Positions 18,672 through 29,856 of a stretch of DNA of 64,000 nt are shown here, piece by piece; the stretch's first letter is position 1, and the number at the start of each line of letters is the position of its first letter. The position numbers and the translations under genes were made by a program. A model generated the notes under the pieces. The model worked only from the letters and a program-made list of their open reading frames with translations. It made no database searches and was not told where the DNA came from. Origin of the DNA: Melioribacter roseus (GTDB lineage: Bacteria; Bacteroidota; Ignavibacteria; Ignavibacteriales; Melioribacteraceae); contig DYHH01000020.1 in the NCBI GenBank assembly GCA_020724265.1, positions 1-64,000 on the forward strand, in the 5' to 3' direction.

Positions 18672-19439
18672 TTAATTCTTAGAATCTTTTCTTTTTTTTA
18701 TTAAAAGTACAGTTAAGAAAACACCTACAATAATCATCATAATCGAACCGATGATACGAGTTATATTTAGTGTATAACTTCTTCCATCGGGATCGTAACT
18801 AAAACAAAACTGTAAAACTTTTGCAACAGTTGGATTTGTTTTTCCGCTGCCGGCATCAATCAATGCCATTTTAACATCAAACGGATTATAAGTTGAACCA
18901 AAAATATATCTTGAAATTTTTCCTTCCGGTGAAATTGCAATTAAAGCACCGGCATGAAGAAAATCATCTTGAGTTGGCTTGTAATAAAATCCTACTGCTT
19001 CAGTTACTTTGGCAATATTTAATGAATCGCCTGTTAAAAAAGTCCAAGCTTCATCCGGGAAATTTCTTCTAATGCTATTGAAATAATTCTTTTTCCATTT
19101 AGCGGCAACTTCGGGGGTTTCGCGCGGATCAAAACTGATTGTAATTACATTAAAATCCTCTAATGGTTCAAGCTGAACTTTATCAACTACCCATGAGAGT
19201 TCTGTTAGAAGCGGACTACAAATTCCAGGGCATTCATAATAAACTAAAGCTAATAAAAACGGTTTATCAACAATATCTTTTAAGGAAACCGTATCTCCTT
19301 TGGATGTTTGAAAAACTGCTTCCATCGGGATATAGTTCCCAAGTTTTTCATCAATGCCGACTTCAATTTCACTTGCCGGTATTGATAAATAACTTAAGTT
19401 AAAAATGAGTAGAAAAAATAAACTCCTTAAAAATTTCAT
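18672..19439 (-). CDS. SCO1/SenC-family copper chaperone
   Basis: Thioredoxin-like protein that delivers copper to, or reduces, the CuA site of CoxB. It has a signal peptide (1-22), the copper-binding CPGIC motif (Cys70 and Cys74) and the conserved His162 (DFLHAG). Unusually for a short SCO protein it also ends in a membrane helix (about 228-247) with a Lys- and Arg-rich tail, so it may be anchored at both ends or by the tail after signal cleavage. It sits between the cytochrome c gene and coxA, the expected place for an assembly factor. Start ATG overlaps the preceding stop by one base. Confidence 0.93.
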   Translation of the reverse strand: MKFLRSLFFLLIFNLSYLSIPASEIEVGIDEKLGNYIPMEAVFQTSKGDTVSLKDIVDKPFLLALVYYECPGICSPLLTELSWVVDKVQLEPLEDFNVITISFDPRETPEVAAKWKKNYFNSIRRNFPDEAWTFLTGDSLNIAKVTEAVGFYYKPTQDDFLHAGALIAISPEGKISRYIFGSTYNPFDVKMALIDAGSGKTNPTVAKVLQFCFSYDPDGRSYTLNITRIIGSIMMIIVGVFLTVLLIKKRKDSKN

Positions 19440-20380
19440 TATGCTCTTGCTGTCCCTATAACATTTTTCAAATAATTATATAGATTCTGCCATTCGGTTC
19501 CTTTTAACAAATTAACTTCTGCGCTAAAACCCATTTCAAGAAAATTAACATTTACAACTTGTATAAAATCTTCTAAACTCAGTTTGCTGAAATCAACTTC
19601 AATAAATGAAGAAAATACCCTGTACTTATTAACTGCAGTTTTATTAAATACATCAACACCTTGAATTGAAGGATGATTATTAACATAAGCAATTAAATTT
19701 GCAATTCTCTTTGAATGAGATTTTTCATTTACTAATTGAGTAAATGCCATCTCAACAGTAATTTGATCGGATGTAGCTCGTCCTTCCGACAATTTATAAG
19801 TCATTTCTAATTCTTGAACTTGCTCATCTGTTACGGTCGGATAATCAGCAAAGGTTCTGATATATTGAATCATTGCAATTCGATCGGCAGGAGGTAAGAA
19901 TTCATAAGCAACCATACCTGTTTGTGGAATTCCTTCCTCAAGTGTTTTATATAATCCCGTGAAATCAACGCCGTTTTTCCATCCATCTAATTTCGTTAAA
20001 TTTCTTGCCGGAGGATTCAAAGCCATACCGGCAACTCCATCACCTAATCCCGATTCGCCATGACATGAAGCACAATTTTTCTTATAAAGATCTTTACCCT
20101 TGTTAATTAATTCATCGGTTGGATCAGTAATGGTAGAAATATCAACAGCAGGCATTATCGAACCACTTTTTACTTCAAGAGTTCGTTTAACTTCATCCTT
20201 TACCGGTGCTTTAGCGGGAAGAGTATTAACATTGATTGTGTTGAGATTATTCACATAATAAATTCCGACAATCAATATTATCAAAAAGAAATAAACAAAC
20301 ACCCAACCAAACAACCTTTTTGGTTTTTTGATTAACGATTTAAAGTCAATTTCAGGTTCGTATTTTTTATTTTGTTCCAT
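19439..20380 (-). CDS. Membrane-anchored monoheme cytochrome c
   Basis: A 313-residue protein with one N-terminal membrane helix (about 24-44), a single cytochrome c domain (CASCH at 103-107, with YEFLPPADR and later segments) and a C-terminal region of about 110 residues without heme motifs. It lies between actF and sco. Because ActE is already fused to ActD here, this is an extra cytochrome, a reasonable link between ACIII and the caa3 oxidase (inference). The last 110 residues are not recognised and may be a binding domain. Start ATG. Confidence 0.85.
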   Translation of the reverse strand: MEQNKKYEPEIDFKSLIKKPKRLFGWVFVYFFLIILIVGIYYVNNLNTINVNTLPAKAPVKDEVKRTLEVKSGSIMPAVDISTITDPTDELINKGKDLYKKNCASCHGESGLGDGVAGMALNPPARNLTKLDGWKNGVDFTGLYKTLEEGIPQTGMVAYEFLPPADRIAMIQYIRTFADYPTVTDEQVQELEMTYKLSEGRATSDQITVEMAFTQLVNEKSHSKRIANLIAYVNNHPSIQGVDVFNKTAVNKYRVFSSFIEVDFSKLSLEDFIQVVNVNFLEMGFSAEVNLLKGTEWQNLYNYLKNVIGTARA

Positions 20381-20395
20381 TTCCGATTTTCCAAA

Positions 20396-21583
20396 TTAGA
20401 GTCTAAAGTCTAAACCTCTTTTAAGTTTGGGATCACCAATAGGTACTAAATTTTCTTTCTTTGCTTTAATTCCGAAAACAATAACCATTATTCCGAAAGT
20501 CAACAACGGGAAACCTAATTCCATCCAGCTAAAAGGAATACTTTCGGGGCTGTAAGTTGGCATAATCAACCAATACAAATCAACTATATGAGCTACCAAT
20601 AGCCAAATAGCCATGAATTTCAATCTCTTTGGATTTGTTTTTGACGGCTGTGATACTAACCCGAAATAAGGTACAACAAAATGAACAAAAATCAACAGTA
20701 GCGAAACAACAATCCAGCCCCCTTCCCATCTGTTAAGATACCAATAAGTTTCTTCGGGAATGTTAGCGTAATAAATTAATAAAAATTGAGAGAATGCTAT
20801 GTATGCCCAAAAGTTAACAAATGCGAACATTAAAGCACCGAGGCTATAATAATGATCTGTCTTAATTCCTTTTATAAATAAACCTTTTTCAGTCAGATAA
20901 ACAACTAAAAATGTAACAACAGCAATTGCCGCTAAAACAGTTCCGGAGAAATAATAAATTCCAAAAATAGTACTGAACCAATGAGGTTCAAGACTCATTA
21001 TCCAATCAACCGAAGCAATAGTTATAGTAATTGCGAAGAAAGGCATGAAGATAGCGGAGATTTTAATATTGCTTGAAGTTAATTTCTGATCACCGGTCTG
21101 ATCTTGCAAGCGTGATCTTTTTGTAAGCATGAAATAAAATAACATCCAAACTAAAAATATTACGACCACCCTTATTGTAAAGAAAGGAATATTGAGGTAT
21201 CCGACTTTTCCGCTGAGAATTTCATCACTCAATACATCTTCCGTATGAGTCCAGTGAAACATATCGTGCATATTAAAATAAACGGGTATTGCAATGATCG
21301 GCAGAATAAATATAATTGCTCCTAAAAATTCAGGTATTCTTCTGAAGGGAACACTCCATACTGCACCGCCGAGATATTCAATTGCAACAAGAAATAGTGA
21401 ACCGACACCTATACTGCTTAAGAACATCAACATTATCAAATTATTGAATGAACTCCTTACCGGATCGACTAAATATGAAATAATAACAAGAACTAAACCT
21501 ACGGCAAAAAGTGTATAACCGGCTTTCCCAAAGCTAGAAGGTAGTTCTTTTTTAGAATATTCAATTTTTGTTTCTGAACTCAT
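20396..21583 (-). CDS. actF: ACIII subunit ActF (NrfD-like quinone-binding membrane subunit)
   Basis: The 395-residue protein has about ten membrane helices and belongs to the NrfD/PsrC-like group, which forms half of the paired membrane core of alternative complex III. It is shorter than ActC, as is usual for ActF. Conserved-looking stretches include SIGVGSLFLVAIEYLGGAVWS and HDMFHWTH. In the structure known from Flavobacterium, ActC rather than ActF is proposed to hold the quinol site. The ATG overlaps the actDE stop by one base (TAATG), indicating coupling. Confidence 0.92.
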   Translation of the reverse strand: MSSETKIEYSKKELPSSFGKAGYTLFAVGLVLVIISYLVDPVRSSFNNLIMLMFLSSIGVGSLFLVAIEYLGGAVWSVPFRRIPEFLGAIIFILPIIAIPVYFNMHDMFHWTHTEDVLSDEILSGKVGYLNIPFFTIRVVVIFLVWMLFYFMLTKRSRLQDQTGDQKLTSSNIKISAIFMPFFAITITIASVDWIMSLEPHWFSTIFGIYYFSGTVLAAIAVVTFLVVYLTEKGLFIKGIKTDHYYSLGALMFAFVNFWAYIAFSQFLLIYYANIPEETYWYLNRWEGGWIVVSLLLIFVHFVVPYFGLVSQPSKTNPKRLKFMAIWLLVAHIVDLYWLIMPTYSPESIPFSWMELGFPLLTFGIMVIVFGIKAKKENLVPIGDPKLKRGLDFRL

Positions 21584-22719
21584 TATAAATCAGACTCCTT
21601 AGCATTTAGTGCGCGCTGCAATGCCCTGATGTATAAAATAGTTGCCCACTTTTCTTCACGTGTCATTTGTGTAGAATAAGAAGGCATTACATTTTGTCCT
21701 TCTGTAATTACATGATAAATTCTGCCGTCACTCCATAACTTTACTTTTTCCGAATGAATAGAAGGTGGATTAGGATATTGACCTCGTAATCTGCTATCGC
21801 CTTCACCAAAATATCCATGACACGGGCTGCAGAAAACATCATATTTTTTCTTTCCTAATGCTAAATTTTCTTCCGAATAATCCAGAGGATTAATCATAAG
21901 CTTTTCAGCTAATTCCGGTTTACCATAATATGGATAAGGAATTGCACCTCTTGAGATTGTTCCTTCGACCGGCATTCTCATTGAGAAACCATCAGCGAAT
22001 ACATTTGTCGTTTCTTGAGGAAGTGCTTTATCTTGTTCCATCATCCAATTAAACGGAACCATATACATCAATTTGTTCAGTCCGAAATATGTAGTACCGG
22101 AAATAATAATTGCAGTTACAGCAAGAAAACCTAAAAACTTGGGTTCTAAAATTTTTGGCGAAGTGCTAACTTCTTCTTCATCCCAATAAATCTCACCAAC
22201 CTCGGCTGCACCTAATTCATTTAAGAATTTTTTTATTTCTTCGGCATTAAAAAGTTCATCATCCGCTTGAATATTAATACCGTATTTCTCGGTCGATACT
22301 TTTTTCATGTAATCGGTATCATGCAGCGGATGAGAGTTGTTCGGGAATTTGAAAAAGAAAAACAACATTGTAACTACTGTTCCAATTGCTGCAGCCAATA
22401 CTGTAACTTCAAACATAATCGGGACGTATTTAGGGAAAGCGAAATACGGTTTGCCGCCGATGATTATGGGATAATCAATAGCCGACATCCAGAAAGTCAT
22501 TAGCAAAGCTGCAAGAGTACCACTCAAACCAAATACCAAAGCAGCAAATCCCAATTTAGATCTACCCAATTTCATTGCATTAGGCATGCCGTGAATCGGG
22601 TAAGGAGTGTTTACGTCAAATTTTTTATAACCCTTCTCTGCAGTCTTTTCAGCTGCTTTGATAATCTCATCGGGAGTATTAAATATAGCCGTTATAGCAA
22701 ATAAAACTTTTTCACTCAT
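21583..22719 (-). CDS. Fused ActD-ActE: ACIII membrane subunit plus cytochrome c
   Basis: Residues 1 to about 185 match ActD (DUF3341): an N-terminal soluble part, two membrane helices (about 56-80 and 98-123) and a small alpha/beta part. Residues from about 193 form ActE: one membrane helix (195-215) and a monoheme cytochrome c domain with CSPCH at 297-301 and Met in the VMPSYS segment. These are usually separate genes; here they make one 378-residue frame with no stop between. I start at ATG 22717-22719, nine bases after AAGGA. A TTG two codons earlier overlaps the actC stop but is too close to the ribosome site. Confidence 0.92.
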   Translation of the reverse strand: MSEKVLFAITAIFNTPDEIIKAAEKTAEKGYKKFDVNTPYPIHGMPNAMKLGRSKLGFAALVFGLSGTLAALLMTFWMSAIDYPIIIGGKPYFAFPKYVPIMFEVTVLAAAIGTVVTMLFFFFKFPNNSHPLHDTDYMKKVSTEKYGINIQADDELFNAEEIKKFLNELGAAEVGEIYWDEEEVSTSPKILEPKFLGFLAVTAIIISGTTYFGLNKLMYMVPFNWMMEQDKALPQETTNVFADGFSMRMPVEGTISRGAIPYPYYGKPELAEKLMINPLDYSEENLALGKKKYDVFCSPCHGYFGEGDSRLRGQYPNPPSIHSEKVKLWSDGRIYHVITEGQNVMPSYSTQMTREEKWATILYIRALQRALNAKESDL

Positions 22720-22721
22720 TA

Positions 22722-24089
22722 TCAATGATCCTTATGTGAAGGTTGAGCATCTTCTAAAACTGCTTTTACTTCTGCAATAGATACAACCGGTAATGTCTTT
22801 GTAAATAATAACATGAGAGTAAAGAATAAACCGAAACTTCCGATTAGTATTGCAAAGTCAGTAAGAGTTGGAGTATAATAAGCCCAGCTTGAAGGTAAAT
22901 AATCTCTTGATAAAGAGGTTACCGTAATTACAAATCTTTCGAACCACATACCGACATTAACGAGAACAGCAATTGCAAACATAACCGGAATTGTTCTTCG
23001 TATTTTTTTAATCCAGAATAATTGAGGGAAAACAACATTACAAGTAACCATTATCCAATAAGCCCAAGCATACGGTCCGAACGCCCTATTAATAAATGCA
23101 AATTGCTCCGGCTGTACACCGGAATACCAAGCAATAAAAAATTCCATTGCATAAGCATAACCAACCATACTTCCTGTGAGAAGTATTATTTTATTCATTT
23201 TCTCAAGTGTATCTAAGGTTATTATATGCTCAAAATTGAATATCTTTCTAATAAAGATGAGAACATTTTGTACCATCGCAAACCCTGAGAAAACTGCACC
23301 GGCAACAAAGTAAGGAGGAAATATTGTTGTATGCCAGCCTGGTATAATCGAAATAGCAAAATCAAAACTTACTATTGTGTGAACAGATAAAACAAGCGGT
23401 GTAGCAAACCCGGCTAATATCAAATATACCATTTCATAATGCTGCCAATGGCGGTTTGAATGACGCCATCCTAAACTAAAAACAGAATAGGTTAATTTTT
23501 TAATTTTATTTTTGGTTCGATCTCTTAAGGTAGCAAAATCGGGAATAAGTCCTACATACCAAAATATTAATGATACGGTGAAATATGTAGAAACAGCAAA
23601 AACATCCCAAAGCAACGGAGAAGAAAAGTTAACCCACAATGAATGTTGATTTGGATAAGGGAATAAATAACCTGCTAACCACGGACGACCGACGTGTATT
23701 AATGGAAAAATTCCAGCAGTCATAACTGCAAAAATTGTCATACCCTCGGCAAAACGAGCAATACCTGTTCTCCATTTCTGTCTGAATAAAAATAAAATAG
23801 CGGAAATCAAAGTACCGGCATGACCAATACCAACCCAGAATACGAAATTGACAATCGGGAATCCCCATCCAACCGGGTTATTGTTACCCCACAAACCCGT
23901 ACCGTAGTAGAAAGACAAACCTAAACCTACAACACCAATCATCAACATTGTAACAGTAATACTTAGAGCTAGATAATATTTTTTATCCGGTTTAGTCTCT
24001 AACGGTTTGGAAATGATTTCGTCTATTTCCCTTAAAGAAGGTCTTTTTTCAATTACAGCTAATTCTTGCGAGTAGTCAACAGTCTGCAC
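22722..24089 (-). CDS. actC: ACIII subunit ActC (NrfD-like)
   Basis: Large membrane subunit (455 residues, about ten helices) of alternative complex III, related to NrfD/PsrC. In known structures it holds the quinol-oxidising site next to the ActB [3Fe-4S] cluster. Conserved stretches include the N-terminal SLREID, a [16 protein letters not shown] segment, GRPW and PYPNQ. The start is GTG (24087-24089), overlapping the actB stop by one base; GGAGGA lies six bases upstream and no nearby ATG fits. Confidence 0.94.
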
Positions 24090-27000
24090 TAGACTTCCTC
24101 CGAGTGAGTATTTCTTAATTTTGCCAAATATGTAACGTTAGGTCTTACATTTAATGATTCGAGAACGTGATAACCAAGTTCGTGGTTTCTATATTTTGCA
24201 ACATCCGATTTAGAATCATTGATGTTACCAAAAACAATTGCATCTGTAGGACAAGCAACTTGACAAGCGGTTTTAACGTTATCGCCAATTATTTCTCTTC
24301 CCTCTCGAATTGCATTTTCTCTTTCGTCCATAATTCTCTGAACACAGAAAGTACATTTTTCCATTACACCGCGTGATCTAACCGTAACTTCAGGATTATT
24401 AACAAGAGCAGTTAAATCATTTTCATAATATGCATTTGCAAAGTGATCTCTGAAATTATAGAAATTAAATCTACGAACTTTATAAGGACAGTTATTAGCA
24501 CAGTATCTTGTTCCGACACATCTGTTATAAGCCATTTGATTCAATCCATCGGAACTATGATTTGTTGCATTAACTGGACAAACATTTTCGCATGGAGCAT
24601 TGTCACAATGCTGACATAACATAGGCTGAGCACTTACAACCGGTTCTTCGGGTGTGCCGGAATAATATCTATCGATACGCATCCACTGCATTTCTCGTCC
24701 CATTGCAACTTGTTCTTTACCGACAACCGGAACATTATTTTCAACATTACAAGATGTTACACATGCCGCACAACTTGTACATTTGTTTAGATCAATTGCC
24801 ATTCCCCATTTTAAGCCTTCATAAATATGGGGTTGTGTTATATCAAAAATATCGTATTTGTTTTTATCTAAGAATTTTGGATTTTCTTTATACTCTTGAA
24901 GAGTTCCTTCTTGAATGATTTTTCTTATATAATGAAAATCCTTAACAAAAGTATCGTCAATCGCATGATGTTCTTGAGTTGATGCTAATGCATATCTTTT
25001 ACCTGTCCTTGAAATATTAACATCGTCTAAATTGTATTTAACAGAATCATTTCCATAAACGATAAAATTATTTGCATTAAATCCCACGTTACTTCCGACA
25101 TCACCGGCTTCAGTTCTTCCGTATCCAAGTTCAATCACAATTAAATCATCTGCCATACCGGGTTGAACAAATGCAGCTATTTCTATTTGTTTTCCATCAG
25201 CTTCTATTTTGATTACATCATCATTTTCAATTGATAGTTTTGATGCAGTTGAAGGTGAAACTGCGGCATAATTATCCCATGCAATTTTTGATACCGGGTG
25301 CGGAGTTTCTTGAAGCCAACCATTATTTGCGAATCTCCCGTCTCCAAGAAAATAATTTTTTTGAAGATGCAATGTTATTGCGTTATTACTCTCGACCTTA
25401 ATATTATTTAGTGAATTGCTATTGAAGGATAACGGTGATGAATTATTTTTTAATTCAAGTACACCATCATGTAAAGATGTATACCAAAAAGTTTTGAAAT
25501 CTGTTGGAGTGTCAAACTTCGAGTAAATATTTTTTTCAAAATTATTCATAAGATATTTGTGATAAATATCTTCAGAATAGTTATCATTTTCATTTATCCA
25601 TCGCAATAATGCAGATTCTTTCTGTCTTGAATCAAATAAAGGAGCAATAACAGGTTGTTGTAGACTATAAATATTATCTCTTGTCAAGAAATCATTCCAG
25701 CTTTCCAAATCATTATGAATCGGAAGTGTATAATTACTATTCACGGAAGTCTCATTAACTGATTGAGAGAAAGTAAGACTCAAATTAACTTTAGATAATG
25801 ATTCCGTGTACCCTAAATCCTTTGGTAAATGATAAACCGGGTTTGTATCGAAATGAATGACAACACCAACTTTACCTGAATTCATTTTTGAAATTAATTC
25901 TTTTATCTCTATTGTCGATACAATTGGTTTTTGAAAAGTTGTTGTTGAATTACTATAAACCGGAGTATTACCTAAAATTTCATTCAATAAATTAACCGCT
26001 AAATGGGTTTCTTTGGATAATGTATCACCGGCATAAACAATTGCATTACCCTTATTTTGAATTAAATCAAAGACAAGGTTATTAACATATTTTTCATTTA
26101 GAGAATACTTTTCAACAAATTCATTCAAACTATATTTTGAAACGAGTGACAATGTATTTCCGCTCAAATCAATTTCCGATGCATTTCTCTTTAATGCAAT
26201 TTCATTAGCTAATGATAAAACAAACTCTAATTGCAGATTAGGTTTAACTCGAAGTCGATAATCGGCATTCATTCCTGTTAAGCTCATCCCGCCTTCAGCA
26301 ACATACAATCTGTTGAAGTTAGAGTTATTCAAAACATCACGTCGAGAAGAATACTTTCGCATATTTTCAATAGTTGAGCCATCTCTTCCCAAAAAATCAG
26401 AATCGAGTGATAATATCACATCTGCTTTATCAAAATCAACAGCCGGTAAAGAATCACTACCGTAAGATTCTTTCCATGCATCTAATCTATTTTTATTAGT
26501 AAATAATCCGTATGAATAAACTCTGGATGTAGGAAATGCATTTACAAAATCATTCAACAATTTTGAAGTAGTTGGTGAAGTTATTAACCCGGTTAAGACT
26601 GCAATTTCTTTCCCTTCACTAATAGATTTCTTAAATGAAGAGATAACCGAAGAATCAACTTCGTTCCAATCTGTTTTTGATTTTCCTTTTAACGGGTATT
26701 GCAATCTATCCGGATCATATAAATTCAGAATGCTTGCTTGTCCGGTTGTACAAAGTTTTCCTTTATTAATAGGATGATCAGGATTTCCATCCACTTTAAC
26801 CGGTCTGCCCTCTCGTGTCTTAACTAAAATTCCGCAATTCTGTTCACAAGCCGTACAAGTGGAAGCATAAAAGTTTGGTTTACCGGGCAGAACTCCTTCA
26901 GGTCTTTTAGTATAAGGAATTATCTCACCTTTATCACGGTAATCAGTACACGAAGTTACGGCAAAGGCTGCGGAGGCAGACAATAATGCTAAAAATTTTC

Positions 27001-27154
27001 TTCTTGAAACAGGACTGATTTCAGAAGGATCGAATTCATCTGTAACACCTTCATTAAACTCATTTACCTTGGCAGTAAAAACTGCATCATTATCATGATA
27101 TTCTTTTAAGCTTCGCCAGAAATTAGGGTTAGTTACTTTTTTGTTATCAGACAT
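24089..27154 (-). CDS. actB: ACIII subunit ActB (molybdopterin-enzyme-like plus iron-sulfur protein)
   Basis: Exported electron-transfer subunit of alternative complex III, 1021 residues. A twin-arginine motif SRRKFL (50-55) and hydrophobic stretch, ending in a TSC sequence that may be lipidated, follow a 49-residue N-terminal lead. Residues about 95-720 resemble molybdopterin oxidoreductases (ActB1 half); known ActB proteins lack the Mo cofactor. Within it Cys100, Cys103, Cys107 and Cys135 form C-x2-C-x3-C-x27-C. Residues about 775-985 are the ferredoxin-like ActB2 half with four Cys groups ([39 protein letters not shown]...CQVAC), expected to bind three [4Fe-4S] and one [3Fe-4S]. Second gene for a large subunit in the operon, downstream of the small Tat peptide. 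Confidence 0.95.
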
Positions 27155-27165
27155 TCTACCAAACC

Positions 27166-27333
27166 TTATTTAGTTCTCTTTATTGCAGATGGATGCAGTT
27201 TAACTTTTTTATTCAGAATTATTCTTTCGGATTTATCGGCATATTTTAGTGGAGACTTTGCAAAAATTGCTGAACCAAATGTTACAATTGCAGTTAATCC
27301 GAAAAATTTTCTTCTGTTAATTTTATTCTTCAT
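27166..27333 (-). CDS. Small Tat-signal-like protein in the ACIII operon
   Basis: A 54-residue frame between actA and actB. It begins MKNKINRRKFFGLTAIVTF, with the twin-arginine RRKFFG pattern and a hydrophobic segment ending in AKS, so it looks like a Tat signal or a membrane anchor. Only about 30 residues remain after it, ending in a basic tail (IKRTK). The ATG at 27331-27333 lies ten bases after the actA stop. An open frame extends ten codons further into actA but that start is less likely. The stop is 11 bases before actB. I know no named family with certainty. It may be an accessory subunit or help export ActB; Tat-dependent small peptides are also known near formate dehydrogenases. Confidence 0.72.
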   Translation of the reverse strand: MKNKINRRKFFGLTAIVTFGSAIFAKSPLKYADKSERIILNKKVKLHPSAIKRTK

Positions 27334-27343
27334 AATAAACTCA

Positions 27344-27913
27344 TTATCTATGACAAGCTGCACAATTTTCAGGCCCGACTTTTACTTTTTCTAAATATGG
27401 AAGATGTTGTTCGGGGTTACGATGACATTCGAGGCAATCTCCCATAGTAAATCCTTTTACTTGCTGAACAACATCCATGTTTGCTACATCACCATGACAA
27501 GTTGCACAATCTATACCGTTGTTAACATGTACACTATGATTGAAATAAGCATAATCCGGTACTTTATGAATTCGTTTCCACGGCAATGGTTTTCCGTTTT
27601 CGTAATATTCTGTTAGTCTAATTATTTCTGGTTGATTTTTTCTTGCTACCGAATGGCAGTTCATACAAGTACTAACAGACGGAACTAAGGCATGCCGCCC
27701 TTTTTCAATACCGGTATGACAATATTGACAGTCAATTTCCATAAGTCCGGCATGTAACTGATGAGAAAAAGCAATCGGCTGCTCTGGTGCATAACCAATA
27801 CCATCTCGCTCGGCTCTTGAGACATAAAAGGTAATTACGAAAGTTATTGCTATAACAAAAAGCGTCAATGGAAGGCGAATTTTAAGAGTGTAATCAAGTA
27901 AAGTTTTTTTCAT
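27344..27913 (-). CDS. actA: ACIII subunit ActA, pentaheme cytochrome c
   Basis: First gene of the respiratory operon. After an N-terminal membrane anchor (about 14-34), five CxxCH motifs can be counted (CQYCH, CMNCH, CATCH, CLECH, CAACH), as in ActA of known alternative complex III. The 189-residue protein ends three residues after the last heme motif begins to close. ATG at 27911-27913 follows AGG six bases upstream; the in-frame TTG two codons earlier is less likely. The promoter must lie within 27914-28124. Confidence 0.95.
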   Translation of the reverse strand: MKKTLLDYTLKIRLPLTLFVIAITFVITFYVSRAERDGIGYAPEQPIAFSHQLHAGLMEIDCQYCHTGIEKGRHALVPSVSTCMNCHSVARKNQPEIIRLTEYYENGKPLPWKRIHKVPDYAYFNHSVHVNNGIDCATCHGDVANMDVVQQVKGFTMGDCLECHRNPEQHLPYLEKVKVGPENCAACHR

Positions 27914-28124
27914 CTGCAACCTGTAGTTACGAAGCTTTCCTTAAAAAATATTTTAATTAAAATTCGGTTGGAGAGACATTCTAAAATAAATCAAAACCTA
28001 ATCAAGAAATTATTTTATTTACAATAAAGATAAGATATAAAATCTTATTTATAGTGGCGCAAGATAAAAAATATTACAAAAAAACAAAAGAAATTCTTCT
28101 CAAGAAATGATATTAAATCTTGAA
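27914..28124. other. Non-coding gap holding the ACIII operon promoter
   Basis: AT-rich gap of 211 bases between the stop of the polyprenyl synthase gene and actA. It holds a perfect seven-base inverted repeat (ATAAGAT, five-base spacer, ATCTTAT, 28030-28048) that could be an operator. A weak five-pair hairpin followed by T-rich sequence (about 28085-28113, minus strand) may terminate the upstream operon. On the minus strand near 27990 a TAGGTTTTG with TTG 21 bases upstream resembles a Bacteroidota promoter with one extra T; I rate it weak. Confidence 0.4.
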
Positions 28125-29102
28125 TTAATTTTTTCTGTTAACAACAAAATCAACTAATTCCAAAAGTGAACTTTTGTACGGACTATCCGGGAATACCTTT
28201 AAACTTTCATTAGCGGAGTGAATGAATTGAACTGCTTGTGATTCTGCATATTCAATACCACCGTTATTTAATACAAAATCAATTACTTCGGAAATTCTAC
28301 CCTTCTTGCTTTCACTTTTAATCAATTTAATAATTCTATTAGCTTCTTTCTTTTCAACATTTTTGAGGGAATATATTAAAGGAAGTGTAATTTTTTTCTC
28401 TTTGATATCACCGCCTAAAGGTTTACCGATAATTTTTGATTTCCCTGTATAATCAAGAATGTCATCACGAATCTGAAAAGCTATGCCTAAAGATTCACCG
28501 AAATTTTTTAATGCGGTAATTTTATTAACATCATCGGTTGAACTTCTTGCTCCAATTTCACAGCATGTTGATATCAACGATGCAGTTTTATCCGAAATAA
28601 TTTTGAAATAAGTTTCTTCATCGATATCAAGTTTTCTTGTTTTGCTAATTTGCAGTAATTCCCCTTCAGACATGCGCTTAACAGTATCGGTAACAACCCG
28701 TAGAAAATCAAAATCATTACCATCGACTGCTAGCATAAGTCCGCGGGATAATAAATAATCTCCAATTAAAACGGCAACTTTATTTTTCCAAACAGCATTT
28801 ATAGATGGTATACCGCGTCTTGTTTCGGCAGCATCAACAACATCATCATGAACTAGTGTTGCAGTATGAAGCATTTCAACTAAAACAGCACCACGGTATG
28901 CTCTATCGGATATTTCTCCGCTTAAACCTGCCGAAAGTAATACCAAAACCGGACGTATTTTTTTACCCTTTTGTTTTAAGATATACTTGGTAACTAAATC
29001 GACTAGACCAACTTTGGACTTGAGAGAAATTTTGAATTTATCGTTGAAAAGATCGAGTTCTTTTTCAATCGGCTGGATTATTTCTGAAAGTTTAATCTGC
29101 AA
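28125..29102 (-). CDS. Polyprenyl diphosphate synthase (octaprenyl-type)
   Basis: Makes long-chain trans-prenyl diphosphates, probably the side chain of menaquinone. Both Asp-rich motifs are present: LVHDDVVDAAETRRG (first) and QIRDDILDYTG (second), together with GKKIRP and GDYLLSRG. Two TTG codons are possible starts. I choose 29100-29102 (about 325 residues), because AGAGAAAGG precedes it and it overlaps tatC by only 11 bases; the outer TTG at 29130-29132 has no ribosome site and overlaps by 41. A quinone-chain role fits the neighbouring quinol-oxidising complex. Confidence 0.9.
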   Translation of the reverse strand: MQIKLSEIIQPIEKELDLFNDKFKISLKSKVGLVDLVTKYILKQKGKKIRPVLVLLSAGLSGEISDRAYRGAVLVEMLHTATLVHDDVVDAAETRRGIPSINAVWKNKVAVLIGDYLLSRGLMLAVDGNDFDFLRVVTDTVKRMSEGELLQISKTRKLDIDEETYFKIISDKTASLISTCCEIGARSSTDDVNKITALKNFGESLGIAFQIRDDILDYTGKSKIIGKPLGGDIKEKKITLPLIYSLKNVEKKEANRIIKLIKSESKKGRISEVIDFVLNNGGIEYAESQAVQFIHSANESLKVFPDSPYKSSLLELVDFVVNRKN

Positions 29103-29856
29103 TACCCTTTCTCTGGAATACTTTTGCAACAAAAATACTTATTTCATACAATAATGCCAACGGAACAGCTAACAACACTTGAGCAACAGGGTCTGTTCCG
29201 GGAGTTAAAATAGCAGCAGCAACTAAAATAAGTACAATTGAGTGTCTGCGATATTTCCTCATAAAAGCCGGAGTAATTAAACCCAATCTCGAGAGGAAAA
29301 ACGACATCATTGGAAGTTCAAAAACTAAACCTGCGGCAAGCATAACACTAATTATTATTGAAAAGTATTCATCTATAGCAAAATTATTTTCAATTTGTTC
29401 ACTCCCAAATTGACCGGCAAATGTAAGTGTTAATGGAAGCATAACATAGTATGCAAATACAATTCCGGAGAGGAAACACAAAGTTGAAAAAGATACAACA
29501 GCCGTAACGTATTTTTTCTCATTTTCTTTAAGTGCGGGTGCAATAAATTTCCAGAGTTGATAAAACAAATTGGGAATACTCAAAACAACTCCCGCTATCA
29601 AAGCAACTTGAAAATAGAGAAATAGCTGTCCGAAAGGTCTGAGATTTTGAAGTTTGATTCTTGCTGATTGAGCAGGCAAAAGAAGTATATGATCAATTAA
29701 AAAATCAATAAAAATCCAGGCAATTATAGTACCGATAACAATACCAATCAACGAGTAAAGAATTCTCCACCGCAACTCTTCGAGATGTTCTAAAAATGAC
29801 ATCTCAACTTCTTTAGAGCTATCATTCTCGGTGTTATTAGTTTCTTCGGAACTCAC
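29092..29856 (-). CDS. tatC: Sec-independent protein translocase TatC
   Basis: Six-helix membrane receptor for twin-arginine signal peptides. The FLEHLEELR motif (about 21-29) is the family's hallmark and binds the signal peptide. The 254 residues contain an acidic N-terminal lead of about 20 residues. The start is GTG 29854-29856; a later ATG just before FLEHLEELR is possible. It directly follows glyA. It would export ActB and perhaps the small Tat-like peptide encoded in the next operon. tatA is not in the window. Confidence 0.95.
   Translation of the reverse strand: MSSEETNNTENDSSKEVEMSFLEHLEELRWRILYSLIGIVIGTIIAWIFIDFLIDHILLLPAQSARIKLQNLRPFGQLFLYFQVALIAGVVLSIPNLFYQLWKFIAPALKENEKKYVTAVVSFSTLCFLSGIVFAYYVMLPLTLTFAGQFGSEQIENNFAIDEYFSIIISVMLAAGLVFELPMMSFFLSRLGLITPAFMRKYRRHSIVLILVAAAILTPGTDPVAQVLLAVPLALLYEISIFVAKVFQRKGIAD

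What the first reader, a model, noticed from the sequence alone, without database searches (positions are those of the whole stretch)
27166..27333. Small Tat-signal peptide between actA and actB
The short frame has a twin-arginine pattern, a hydrophobic stretch and a basic tail, and is placed with short gaps between two core ACIII genes. It is too short to be an ordinary enzyme. It may be an overlooked subunit or export helper of ACIII; tatC lies only a few kilobases upstream.
Basis: partly seen in the sequence, partly recalled or inferred. Interest (0 to 1): 0.55.

Follow-up and report, generated by a model that had tools for sequence, protein, structure and literature searches.

The report
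Overlooked mini-protein of Ignavibacterial respiratory complex
A 55-amino-acid protein, apparently overlooked until now, is encoded between two genes of a bacterial respiratory enzyme (alternative complex III), is kept by nearly all relatives with the same form of that enzyme and was not found at that place in other forms, so it is probably an unseen small subunit of the complex.

Summary
In detail: on the minus strand, 27333-27166, a 55-aa frame (NRRKFF Tat-like motif, one hydrophobic helix, basic tail) lies 10 nt after actA and 11 nt before actB. It is a real gene. Of 245 sampled genomes of the class, 121 encode the Ignavibacterial-type ActA; the frame follows it in 111 by profile and in 7 more by eye, in 1 it seems split by contig ends, and 2 lack it. 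In a named set fetched through ActA, 30 of 30 loci of this ActA type carry it between actA and actB and 0 of 50 others do. Close pairs show purifying selection (finite dN/dS 0.05-0.42). A C-terminal motif, [HN]Px[AS][VI]xR, is conserved besides R-[RK]-x-F-F. On an ActB tree the trait needs two changes, which fits one gain on the branch to ACIII with fused ActD-ActE and one loss. No Pfam or NCBIfam family reaches its cut-off and no PDB chain matches. Best reading: an ACIII accessory subunit, a Tat-inserted, probably uncleaved one-helix anchor whose basic periplasmic tail docks on the complex. Coding status and link to this ACIII type are shown; subunit role, Tat use and docking are inferred. 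tatC proximity says little (8 of 30 loci).

The parts
27166..27333 (-). small gene, 55 aa: Tat-like signal/anchor plus basic tail (the finding)
27301..27315 (-). codons 7-11, RRKFF Tat-like motif; usual family form R-[RK]-x-F-[FL]
27256..27315 (-). codons 7-26, predicted single helix (signal/anchor)
   Evidence: AlphaFold2 model, helix 7-26, pLDDT 95 for residues 11-20
27175..27204 (-). codons 44-53, conserved tail motif VKLHPSAIKR; usual family form [HN]-P-x-[AS]-[VI]-x-R
24089..27154 (-). actB, 1021 aa, own Tat signal SRRKFL with lipobox-like TSC
27344..27919 (-). actA, pentaheme cytochrome c (Ignavibacterial type, about 190 aa)
22722..24089 (-). actC, NrfD-like membrane subunit
   Evidence: Pfam NrfD
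21583..22725 (-). actDE, ActD fused to the monoheme cytochrome ActE
   Evidence: Pfam ActD residues 11-177 and cytochrome c residues 287-366
20396..21583 (-). actF (by position and similarity across loci)
   Evidence: no Pfam hit; found in order after actDE in relatives

Best explanation
The frame is a real gene for a small accessory subunit of the Ignavibacterial type of alternative complex III (ACIII). It is probably made with ActA and ActB from one operon. Its R-[RK]-x-F-F signal takes it to the Tat translocase, the route that ActB also uses. The hydrophobic helix mostly lacks a signal-peptidase site and is probably kept as a membrane anchor, N-terminus in. That leaves a basic tail of about 25-30 residues in the periplasm. 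The conserved end of the tail (VKIHPxAVKR) docks as an extended strap on ActB/ActA/ActE near the membrane and stabilises the complex. The gene maps to the same branch as the fusion of ActD with ActE, which changed how ActE is anchored; the peptide may make up for that change. Shown: the gene, its conservation, its strict link to this ACIII type, and the fusion. Inferred: one operon, Tat use, no cleavage, docking, stabilising role.
For: Place: same strand, between actA and actB, with 10 and 11 nt gaps. In 27 loci fetched by the small protein, the frame overlaps the actB start by 4 or 8 nt in 9 and ends 2-33 nt before it in 18, which suggests translational coupling (actB starts chosen by script). 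Linkage with ActA as bait: 121 of 245 sampled class genomes have this ActA type; a small-gene row follows it in 111 (gap 2-332 nt, median 38), 7 of 9 fetched exceptions show the frame by eye, 1 is apparently split by contig ends, 2 lack it. Named ActA scan, best 80 of at least 577 related stretches: 30 of 30 type-1 loci have the frame, 0 of 50 others have it between actA and actB. Selection: 43 pairs at 55% identity or more, pooled pS 0.56 vs pN 0.21; window vs two congeners dN/dS 0.195. ActB tree of 89 rows: 2 changes for the trait (shuffled mean 26, 0 of 500 as low); type-1 ActB is one side of a branch with local support 100. ActD-ActE is fused in 9 of 9 type-1 loci long enough to tell and in the window; ActE is a separate frame in 13 of 13 type-2 loci. 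No Cys in 78 of 78, so no Cys-bound cofactor; AxA after the helix in only 10 of 78; tail net charge median +7. AlphaFold2: one helix 7-26, then extended tail.
Against: No proteomic or structural evidence, and no complex could be modelled. The second Arg is K in 34 of 78, so Tat use is not certain. Two genomes of one genus lack the frame and a third has an eroded helix, while all three keep the fused-ActDE cluster: the gene is not indispensable, and the fusion does not require it. None of the 56 matching genomes among 395 of the phylum lies outside the class, and the profile matches no chain of a solved ACIII, so no known density can be assigned to it; the organisms with solved ACIII were not themselves examined for the gene. 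The co-occurrence with the fusion rests on a single branch, so it is one event and not a repeated correlation. The model's tail is of middling confidence (pTM 0.35).
Confidence: 0.6

Rival explanations
1. Assembly or export helper: a membrane-anchored Tat peptide that binds ActB (or ActA) during export and leaves or stays sub-stoichiometric. The tail recognises the partner, the signal brings both to the translocase.
For: Gene sits directly before actB, overlapping its start in 9 of 27 loci; own Tat-like signal; dispensable in one lineage.
Against: ActB keeps its own complete signal: RR in 70 and RK in 6 of 76 valid matches. In 50 of 50 outgroup loci no such gene lies between actA and actB, though one elsewhere in those genomes was not sought. 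A soluble cytoplasmic chaperone would be the usual solution (recalled).
Confidence: 0.2
2. Cleaved periplasmic peptide: the Tat-like signal is removed and a free basic peptide of about 25-30 residues is the subunit. (Overlaps with the best explanation except for cleavage.)
For: Signal-like n- and h-regions; the window copy has SAIFA-K, a possible site.
Against: AxA in only 10 of 78 sequences; a Pro at the end of the helix is kept in 57 of 77.
Confidence: 0.12
3. Ordinary Sec/YidC-inserted one-helix subunit: the RRKFF motif is only a positive n-region and Tat is not used. (Overlaps with the best explanation except for the route.)
For: K replaces the second R in 34 of 78, N in 2, S in 1; the helix is hydrophobic enough for an anchor (median best 15-residue mean 1.77).
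Against: First Arg kept in 78 of 78 and Phe at the Tat position in 76 of 78, more than an n-region needs. ActB itself, an Fe-S protein, has RK in 6 loci (SRKQFL in 5, SRKKFL in 1), so RK seems tolerated.
Confidence: 0.25
4. Leader frame that only couples translation of actA to actB; the peptide has no function.
For: Short gaps and start-stop overlaps.
Against: Amino-acid level selection and a conserved C-terminal motif.
Confidence: 0.04

Closest known systems
CydX (cytochrome bd oxidase small subunit)
   Same: Easily overlooked one-helix protein of a respiratory enzyme; CydX is a 37-aa part of bd oxidase required for function (start of abstracts of PMC4325964 and PMC6005532 in the listing; papers not opened).
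   Different: CydX has no Tat-like motif and no long basic periplasmic tail (recalled); no sequence comparison made; different enzyme.
TIGR02811, formate dehydrogenase region TAT target
   Same: Small protein with Tat signal and short conserved C-terminus, encoded beside a molybdopterin-family respiratory enzyme (description recalled; name and length of 66 positions).
   Different: Only 1 of 29 members matches, E 0.036; the window copy does not match; cut-off 48.45 bits.
ActH of Rhodothermus marinus ACIII (Rmar_1979)
   Same: An extra, lineage-restricted ACIII subunit recognised only through structure and mass spectrometry, contacting ActA, ActB and ActE (passages of PMC5928083).
   Different: A larger periplasmic protein with a three-helix bundle (same passages); profile search of PDB chains, which hold entry 6f0k, gave no ACIII hit.
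ActG of Rhodothermus marinus ACIII
   Same: ACIII subunit predicted to span the membrane once, not in all act clusters (passages of PMC5928083).
   Different: Authors found no actG homologue in M. roseus (passage of PMC3534657); no sequence comparison made here.
NF038009 TatB_1, Tat-system-associated protein
   Same: 8 of 29 members match weakly, best E 3.4e-4; in five of these the matched stretch starts in the signal region.
   Different: 13.6-17.3 bits in the five members whose scores were shown, against a cut-off of 100; own genome none over cut-off.

Membership tests
Protein-coding gene | Purifying selection on amino acids in relatives | tested here: met
   43 pairs (not independent), pooled pS 0.56, pN 0.21; finite dN/dS in the 40 pairs printed 0.05-0.42
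Tat substrate | S/T-R-R-x-F-L-K type motif (recalled) | tested here: inconclusive
   R7 78/78, position 8 R 41, K 34, N 2, S 1, F10 76/78
Tat substrate | Export depends on TatC | not testable with these tools
   needs a reporter experiment
ACIII subunit | Encoded in act clusters and co-inherited with them | tested here: met
   118 of 121 plus one apparent contig split; 30 of 30 type-1 and 0 of 50 other loci; tree. Holds for the Ignavibacterial type only.
ACIII subunit | Present in the purified complex | not testable with these tools
   no proteomic data held
ACIII subunit | Homologous to a chain in a solved ACIII structure | tested here: not met
   profile A3 against PDB chains: best hit E 0.032, N-terminal part of a formate dehydrogenase; none from ACIII. 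Does not exclude a new subunit.
TIGR02811 formate_TAT | Score over curated cut-off | tested here: not met
   1 of 29 members at E 0.036 (bits not shown); own genome 0 over cut-off
NF038009 TatB_1 | Score over curated cut-off of 100 bits | tested here: not met
   13.6-17.3 bits in the five matching members shown
Duplicated ActB N-terminus | Tail related to mature ActB | tested here: not met
   hhalign aligns 23 signal columns only (probability 88%); tail alone probability 0.2%
ActE N-terminal segment, split off | Tail related to separate ActE of type-2 loci | tested here: not met
   hhalign probability 0.1% against seven ActE sequences
ActG | Sequence relation to R. marinus ActG | not tested
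   sequence not fetched

The most novel reading that the evidence does not exclude
Ignavibacterial ACIII is a distinct architectural class of the enzyme: ActD and ActE fused, and a new Tat-inserted one-helix mini-subunit that arose on the same branch and takes over, from the changed ActE anchor, the strapping of the periplasmic module to the membrane. It would be a Tat-routed bitopic micro-subunit of a quinol-oxidising respiratory complex.
Probability: 0.4. Interest if true: 0.65.

Novelty: new variant of a known kind. Interest (0 to 1): 0.55.

Why it matters
ACIII replaces cytochrome bc1 in many bacteria and its subunit list is still open: the R. marinus structure has an unassigned periplasmic density (PMC5928083, passage). 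A gene kept in nearly all Ignavibacterial-type act clusters examined, yet apparently left out of the M. roseus annotation (actA and actB carry consecutive numbers, Mros0045 and Mros0044, passage of PMC3534657), gives a concrete extra subunit to look for in a cultured organism. It also marks a lineage-specific redesign of the enzyme, and offers a short Tat-like signal-anchor family for asking how strict the twin arginine is.

Tried and rejected
Rejected: frame as chance ORF (conserved and under selection). Rejected: partial duplication of the actB 5' end, suggested by local hits of the window protein to ActB-sized frames over residues 3-45; profile comparison keeps only the signal region. Rejected: tail as the ActE N-terminal segment by homology. 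Rejected as a clue: tatC linkage. Led nowhere: Pfam, NCBIfam and PDB searches, TIGR02811 and NF038009 in the own genome, paper searches for a small ACIII gene between actA and actB (open-access library only; nothing describing one seen in the listings, or in the passages read of PMC5928083, PMC5492636 and PMC3534657).

Rows dropped or chosen by hand: I picked 113 small-gene rows (short open frame, near full length, E 1.7e-22 to 1e-3) and 121 ActA rows (all listed rows down to E 7e-67, one per genome) from the listings. One search left out L020, L023 and L032, and the partial L008. The 78-sequence set was extracted with a C-terminal pattern, so R53 and part of that motif are conserved there by construction; in the 30 frames taken without that filter, [AS][VI]xR is present in 30, the full [HN]Px[AS][VI]xR in 25, and R[RKN]xF[FL] in 28. 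The 27 loci were brought in by the small protein itself and are no evidence for linkage. omits L115 and L137 (no ATG start found). In one search one of the 7 'RK' ActB signals (L017) is a wrong-frame match, found, so 6 of 76 are valid. Searches failed or lost the type-2 rows through a bad cysteine pattern; one search replaces them (14 of 102 loci without a usable full ActB left out). One search stopped with an error before its last count, so outgroup gaps are read.

Full report
What is there. The stretch 27166-27333 codes, on the minus strand, for MKNKINRRKFFG...HPSAIKRTK, 55 aa. It lies between actA (27344-27919) and actB (24089-27154), all on the minus strand, with 10 and 11 nt between. The cluster continues with actC (NrfD), a fused actDE (Pfam ActD plus cytochrome c), actF, another cytochrome c, SCO1 and coxI (actF by position and relatives). 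tatC is upstream, beyond a polyprenyl synthetase gene.

Is it a gene? A first search with the single protein in 58 genomes (own included) found, in 35 of 58, a short stop-free frame aligned to residue 53 or beyond, the weakest at E 0.8. 27 such loci show the frame between actA and actB, with consensus R-R-K-F-F ... P-x-K-x-F ... K-V-x-I-H-P-x-A-V-K-R-x-K. In 9 of the 27 the frame overlaps the actB start by 4 or 8 nt. Among distinct sequences, 43 pairs with at least 55% identity have pooled synonymous difference 0.56 and non-synonymous 0.21; finite dN/dS values among the 40 pairs printed run from 0.05 to 0.42, some pairs are saturated at synonymous sites, and one near-identical pair (L005/L006) has one non-synonymous and no synonymous change. 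The pairs share members and are not independent. The window against its two congeners gives 0.195.

How tightly is it tied to ACIII? Loci found through the small protein cannot answer that, so ActA was used as bait. In 245 sampled genomes of the class, 208 have some ActA-like match; 121 have the type closest to the window's (E 7e-67 or better). A small-gene profile match lies directly 3' of ActA in 111 of 121, gap 2-332 nt, median 38. Of the 10 others, G231 has an incomplete ActA match on one contig and the small frame near the start of another. The remaining nine were fetched: seven show a recognisable frame by eye (L090-L096), in one with a degenerate signal (L093) and in one with an eroded helix (L095); two, both in genus g130, do not (L097, L098). 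Eleven fetched loci with a more distant ActA type show no such frame; in ten the actA-actB gap is about 15-50 nt, in one (L102) the actB frame runs back into actA.

A scan of named genomes with an ActA profile (at least 577 related stretches, the best 80 kept) gave 80 loci. The 30 with ActA at 54% identity or more (Melioribacter, Ignavibacteria, Kapaibacterium, Chlorobiota, one Cloacimonadota MAG and others) all carry the frame. The 50 others (Verrucomicrobiota, Planctomycetota, Fibrobacterota, Acidobacteriota, Myxococcota, Marinimicrobia, Dyadobacter and others) carry none between actA and actB: the estimated gap is zero or negative in 31, 1-80 nt in 15, and larger in 4, where the frames seen are unrelated or none. 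Other places in those genomes were not searched. A profile search of 395 genomes of the phylum at E 1e-5 found it in 56, all labelled same class or closer; how many of the 395 belong to other classes was not shown. On an ActB tree of 89 rows (FastTree, local supports) the trait needs two changes, against a shuffled mean of 26: it fits one gain on the branch (support 100) to the Ignavibacterial type and one loss inside it (the eroded G250 copy is counted as present, twice, as L129 and L231).

What else changed on that branch? In 9 of 9 loci of this type that reach far enough, ActD and ActE are one protein of 379-399 aa (two of the nine are the genomes that lack the small gene); in 13 of 13 type-2 loci ActE is a separate frame, with a separate ActD detected in 12. 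Read by eye, seven of seven type-2 ActE have their own hydrophobic N-terminus followed by a [PRA]-P-[LIV]...M-[DY]-x-Q segment, while in six of six fused proteins an ActD helix runs into the later part. M. roseus authors noted the ActD-ActE fusion (PMC3534657, PMC5492636, passages read). The fusion and the new gene map to the same branch; a causal link is inference.

What does the peptide look like? 78 distinct sequences: first Arg 78 of 78, second R 41, K 34, N 2, S 1, Phe two places further 76 of 78. ActB signals in the same loci are RR 70, RK 6 of 76 valid matches, and 75 of those 76 show a lipobox-like Cys, the last being masked DNA. The small protein has no Cys in 78 of 78, AxA after the helix in 10 of 78, tail net charge median +7. 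In 30 frames taken without a motif filter, [AS][VI]xR is present in 30, the full [HN]Px[AS][VI]xR in 25 and R[RKN]xF[FL] in 28. AlphaFold2 on 29 rows gives a helix at 7-26 and an extended tail, mean pLDDT 79, pTM 0.35. It therefore looks like a one-helix anchor with a basic strap and no cysteine-bound cofactor. The ActB relation stops at the signal.

Most likely working. Co-made with ActA and ActB, Tat-routed, left in the membrane by its helix, tail docked on the periplasmic module by the conserved end. Gene, conservation, linkage and fusion are shown; the rest is inferred. The absence in two genomes with otherwise complete clusters says that it helps rather than makes the enzyme. The export-helper reading is weaker since ActB has its own signal and no such gene lies beside actB in 50 of 50 outgroup loci, but it is not excluded.

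Known or new? No curated family reaches its cut-off and no PDB chain matches convincingly (best E 0.032). ActH and an unassigned periplasmic density in R. marinus ACIII (PMC5928083, passages) show that ACIII has lineage-specific extras; ActH, as described there, is a different and larger protein. Paper searches turned up no description of a small gene between actA and actB, in an open-access library only, by listings and passages. In kind it resembles small subunits such as CydX.

Noticed in passing
window 21583-22725: ActD and the monoheme cytochrome ActE are one fused protein; fused in 9 of 9 type-1 loci long enough to tell, ActE separate in 13 of 13 type-2 loci of the class.
   Followed up: yes
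L095/L129/L231 (G250), L097/L230 (G241), L098/L229 (G215): In genus g130 (G250 matches a record titled Candidatus Kapaibacterium) the small gene is eroded in one genome and not found in two, while the rest of the ACIII cluster is intact.
   Followed up: partly
L136: A MAG labelled Cloacimonadota carries the Ignavibacterial-type ActA (54% identity) and a variant small gene (signal ISRRQAVYG, tail VKIHPTAVSR); lateral transfer or a misassigned MAG.
   Followed up: no
L087, L092, L093, L094, L096, L135: ActB itself has RK instead of RR in its Tat motif in 6 of 76 valid matches, suggesting that Tat in these lineages accepts RK.
   Followed up: partly
window 19439-20380 and 18672-19439: A second monoheme cytochrome c (313 aa) and SCO1 follow actF before the cytochrome oxidase genes; the cytochrome is in the same place in 9 of 9 type-1 relatives with the region.
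   Followed up: no
window 29092-29856: tatC lies close upstream of actA here and in 8 of 30 named type-1 loci, several of them Melioribacter, and in 0 of 50 other loci.
   Followed up: yes
L099-L109, L222-L228, L233-L238: Other families of the same class have a second ActA type (mostly about 200-280 aa, roughly 42-53% identical where matched), without the small gene in the 11 loci examined for it.
   Followed up: partly
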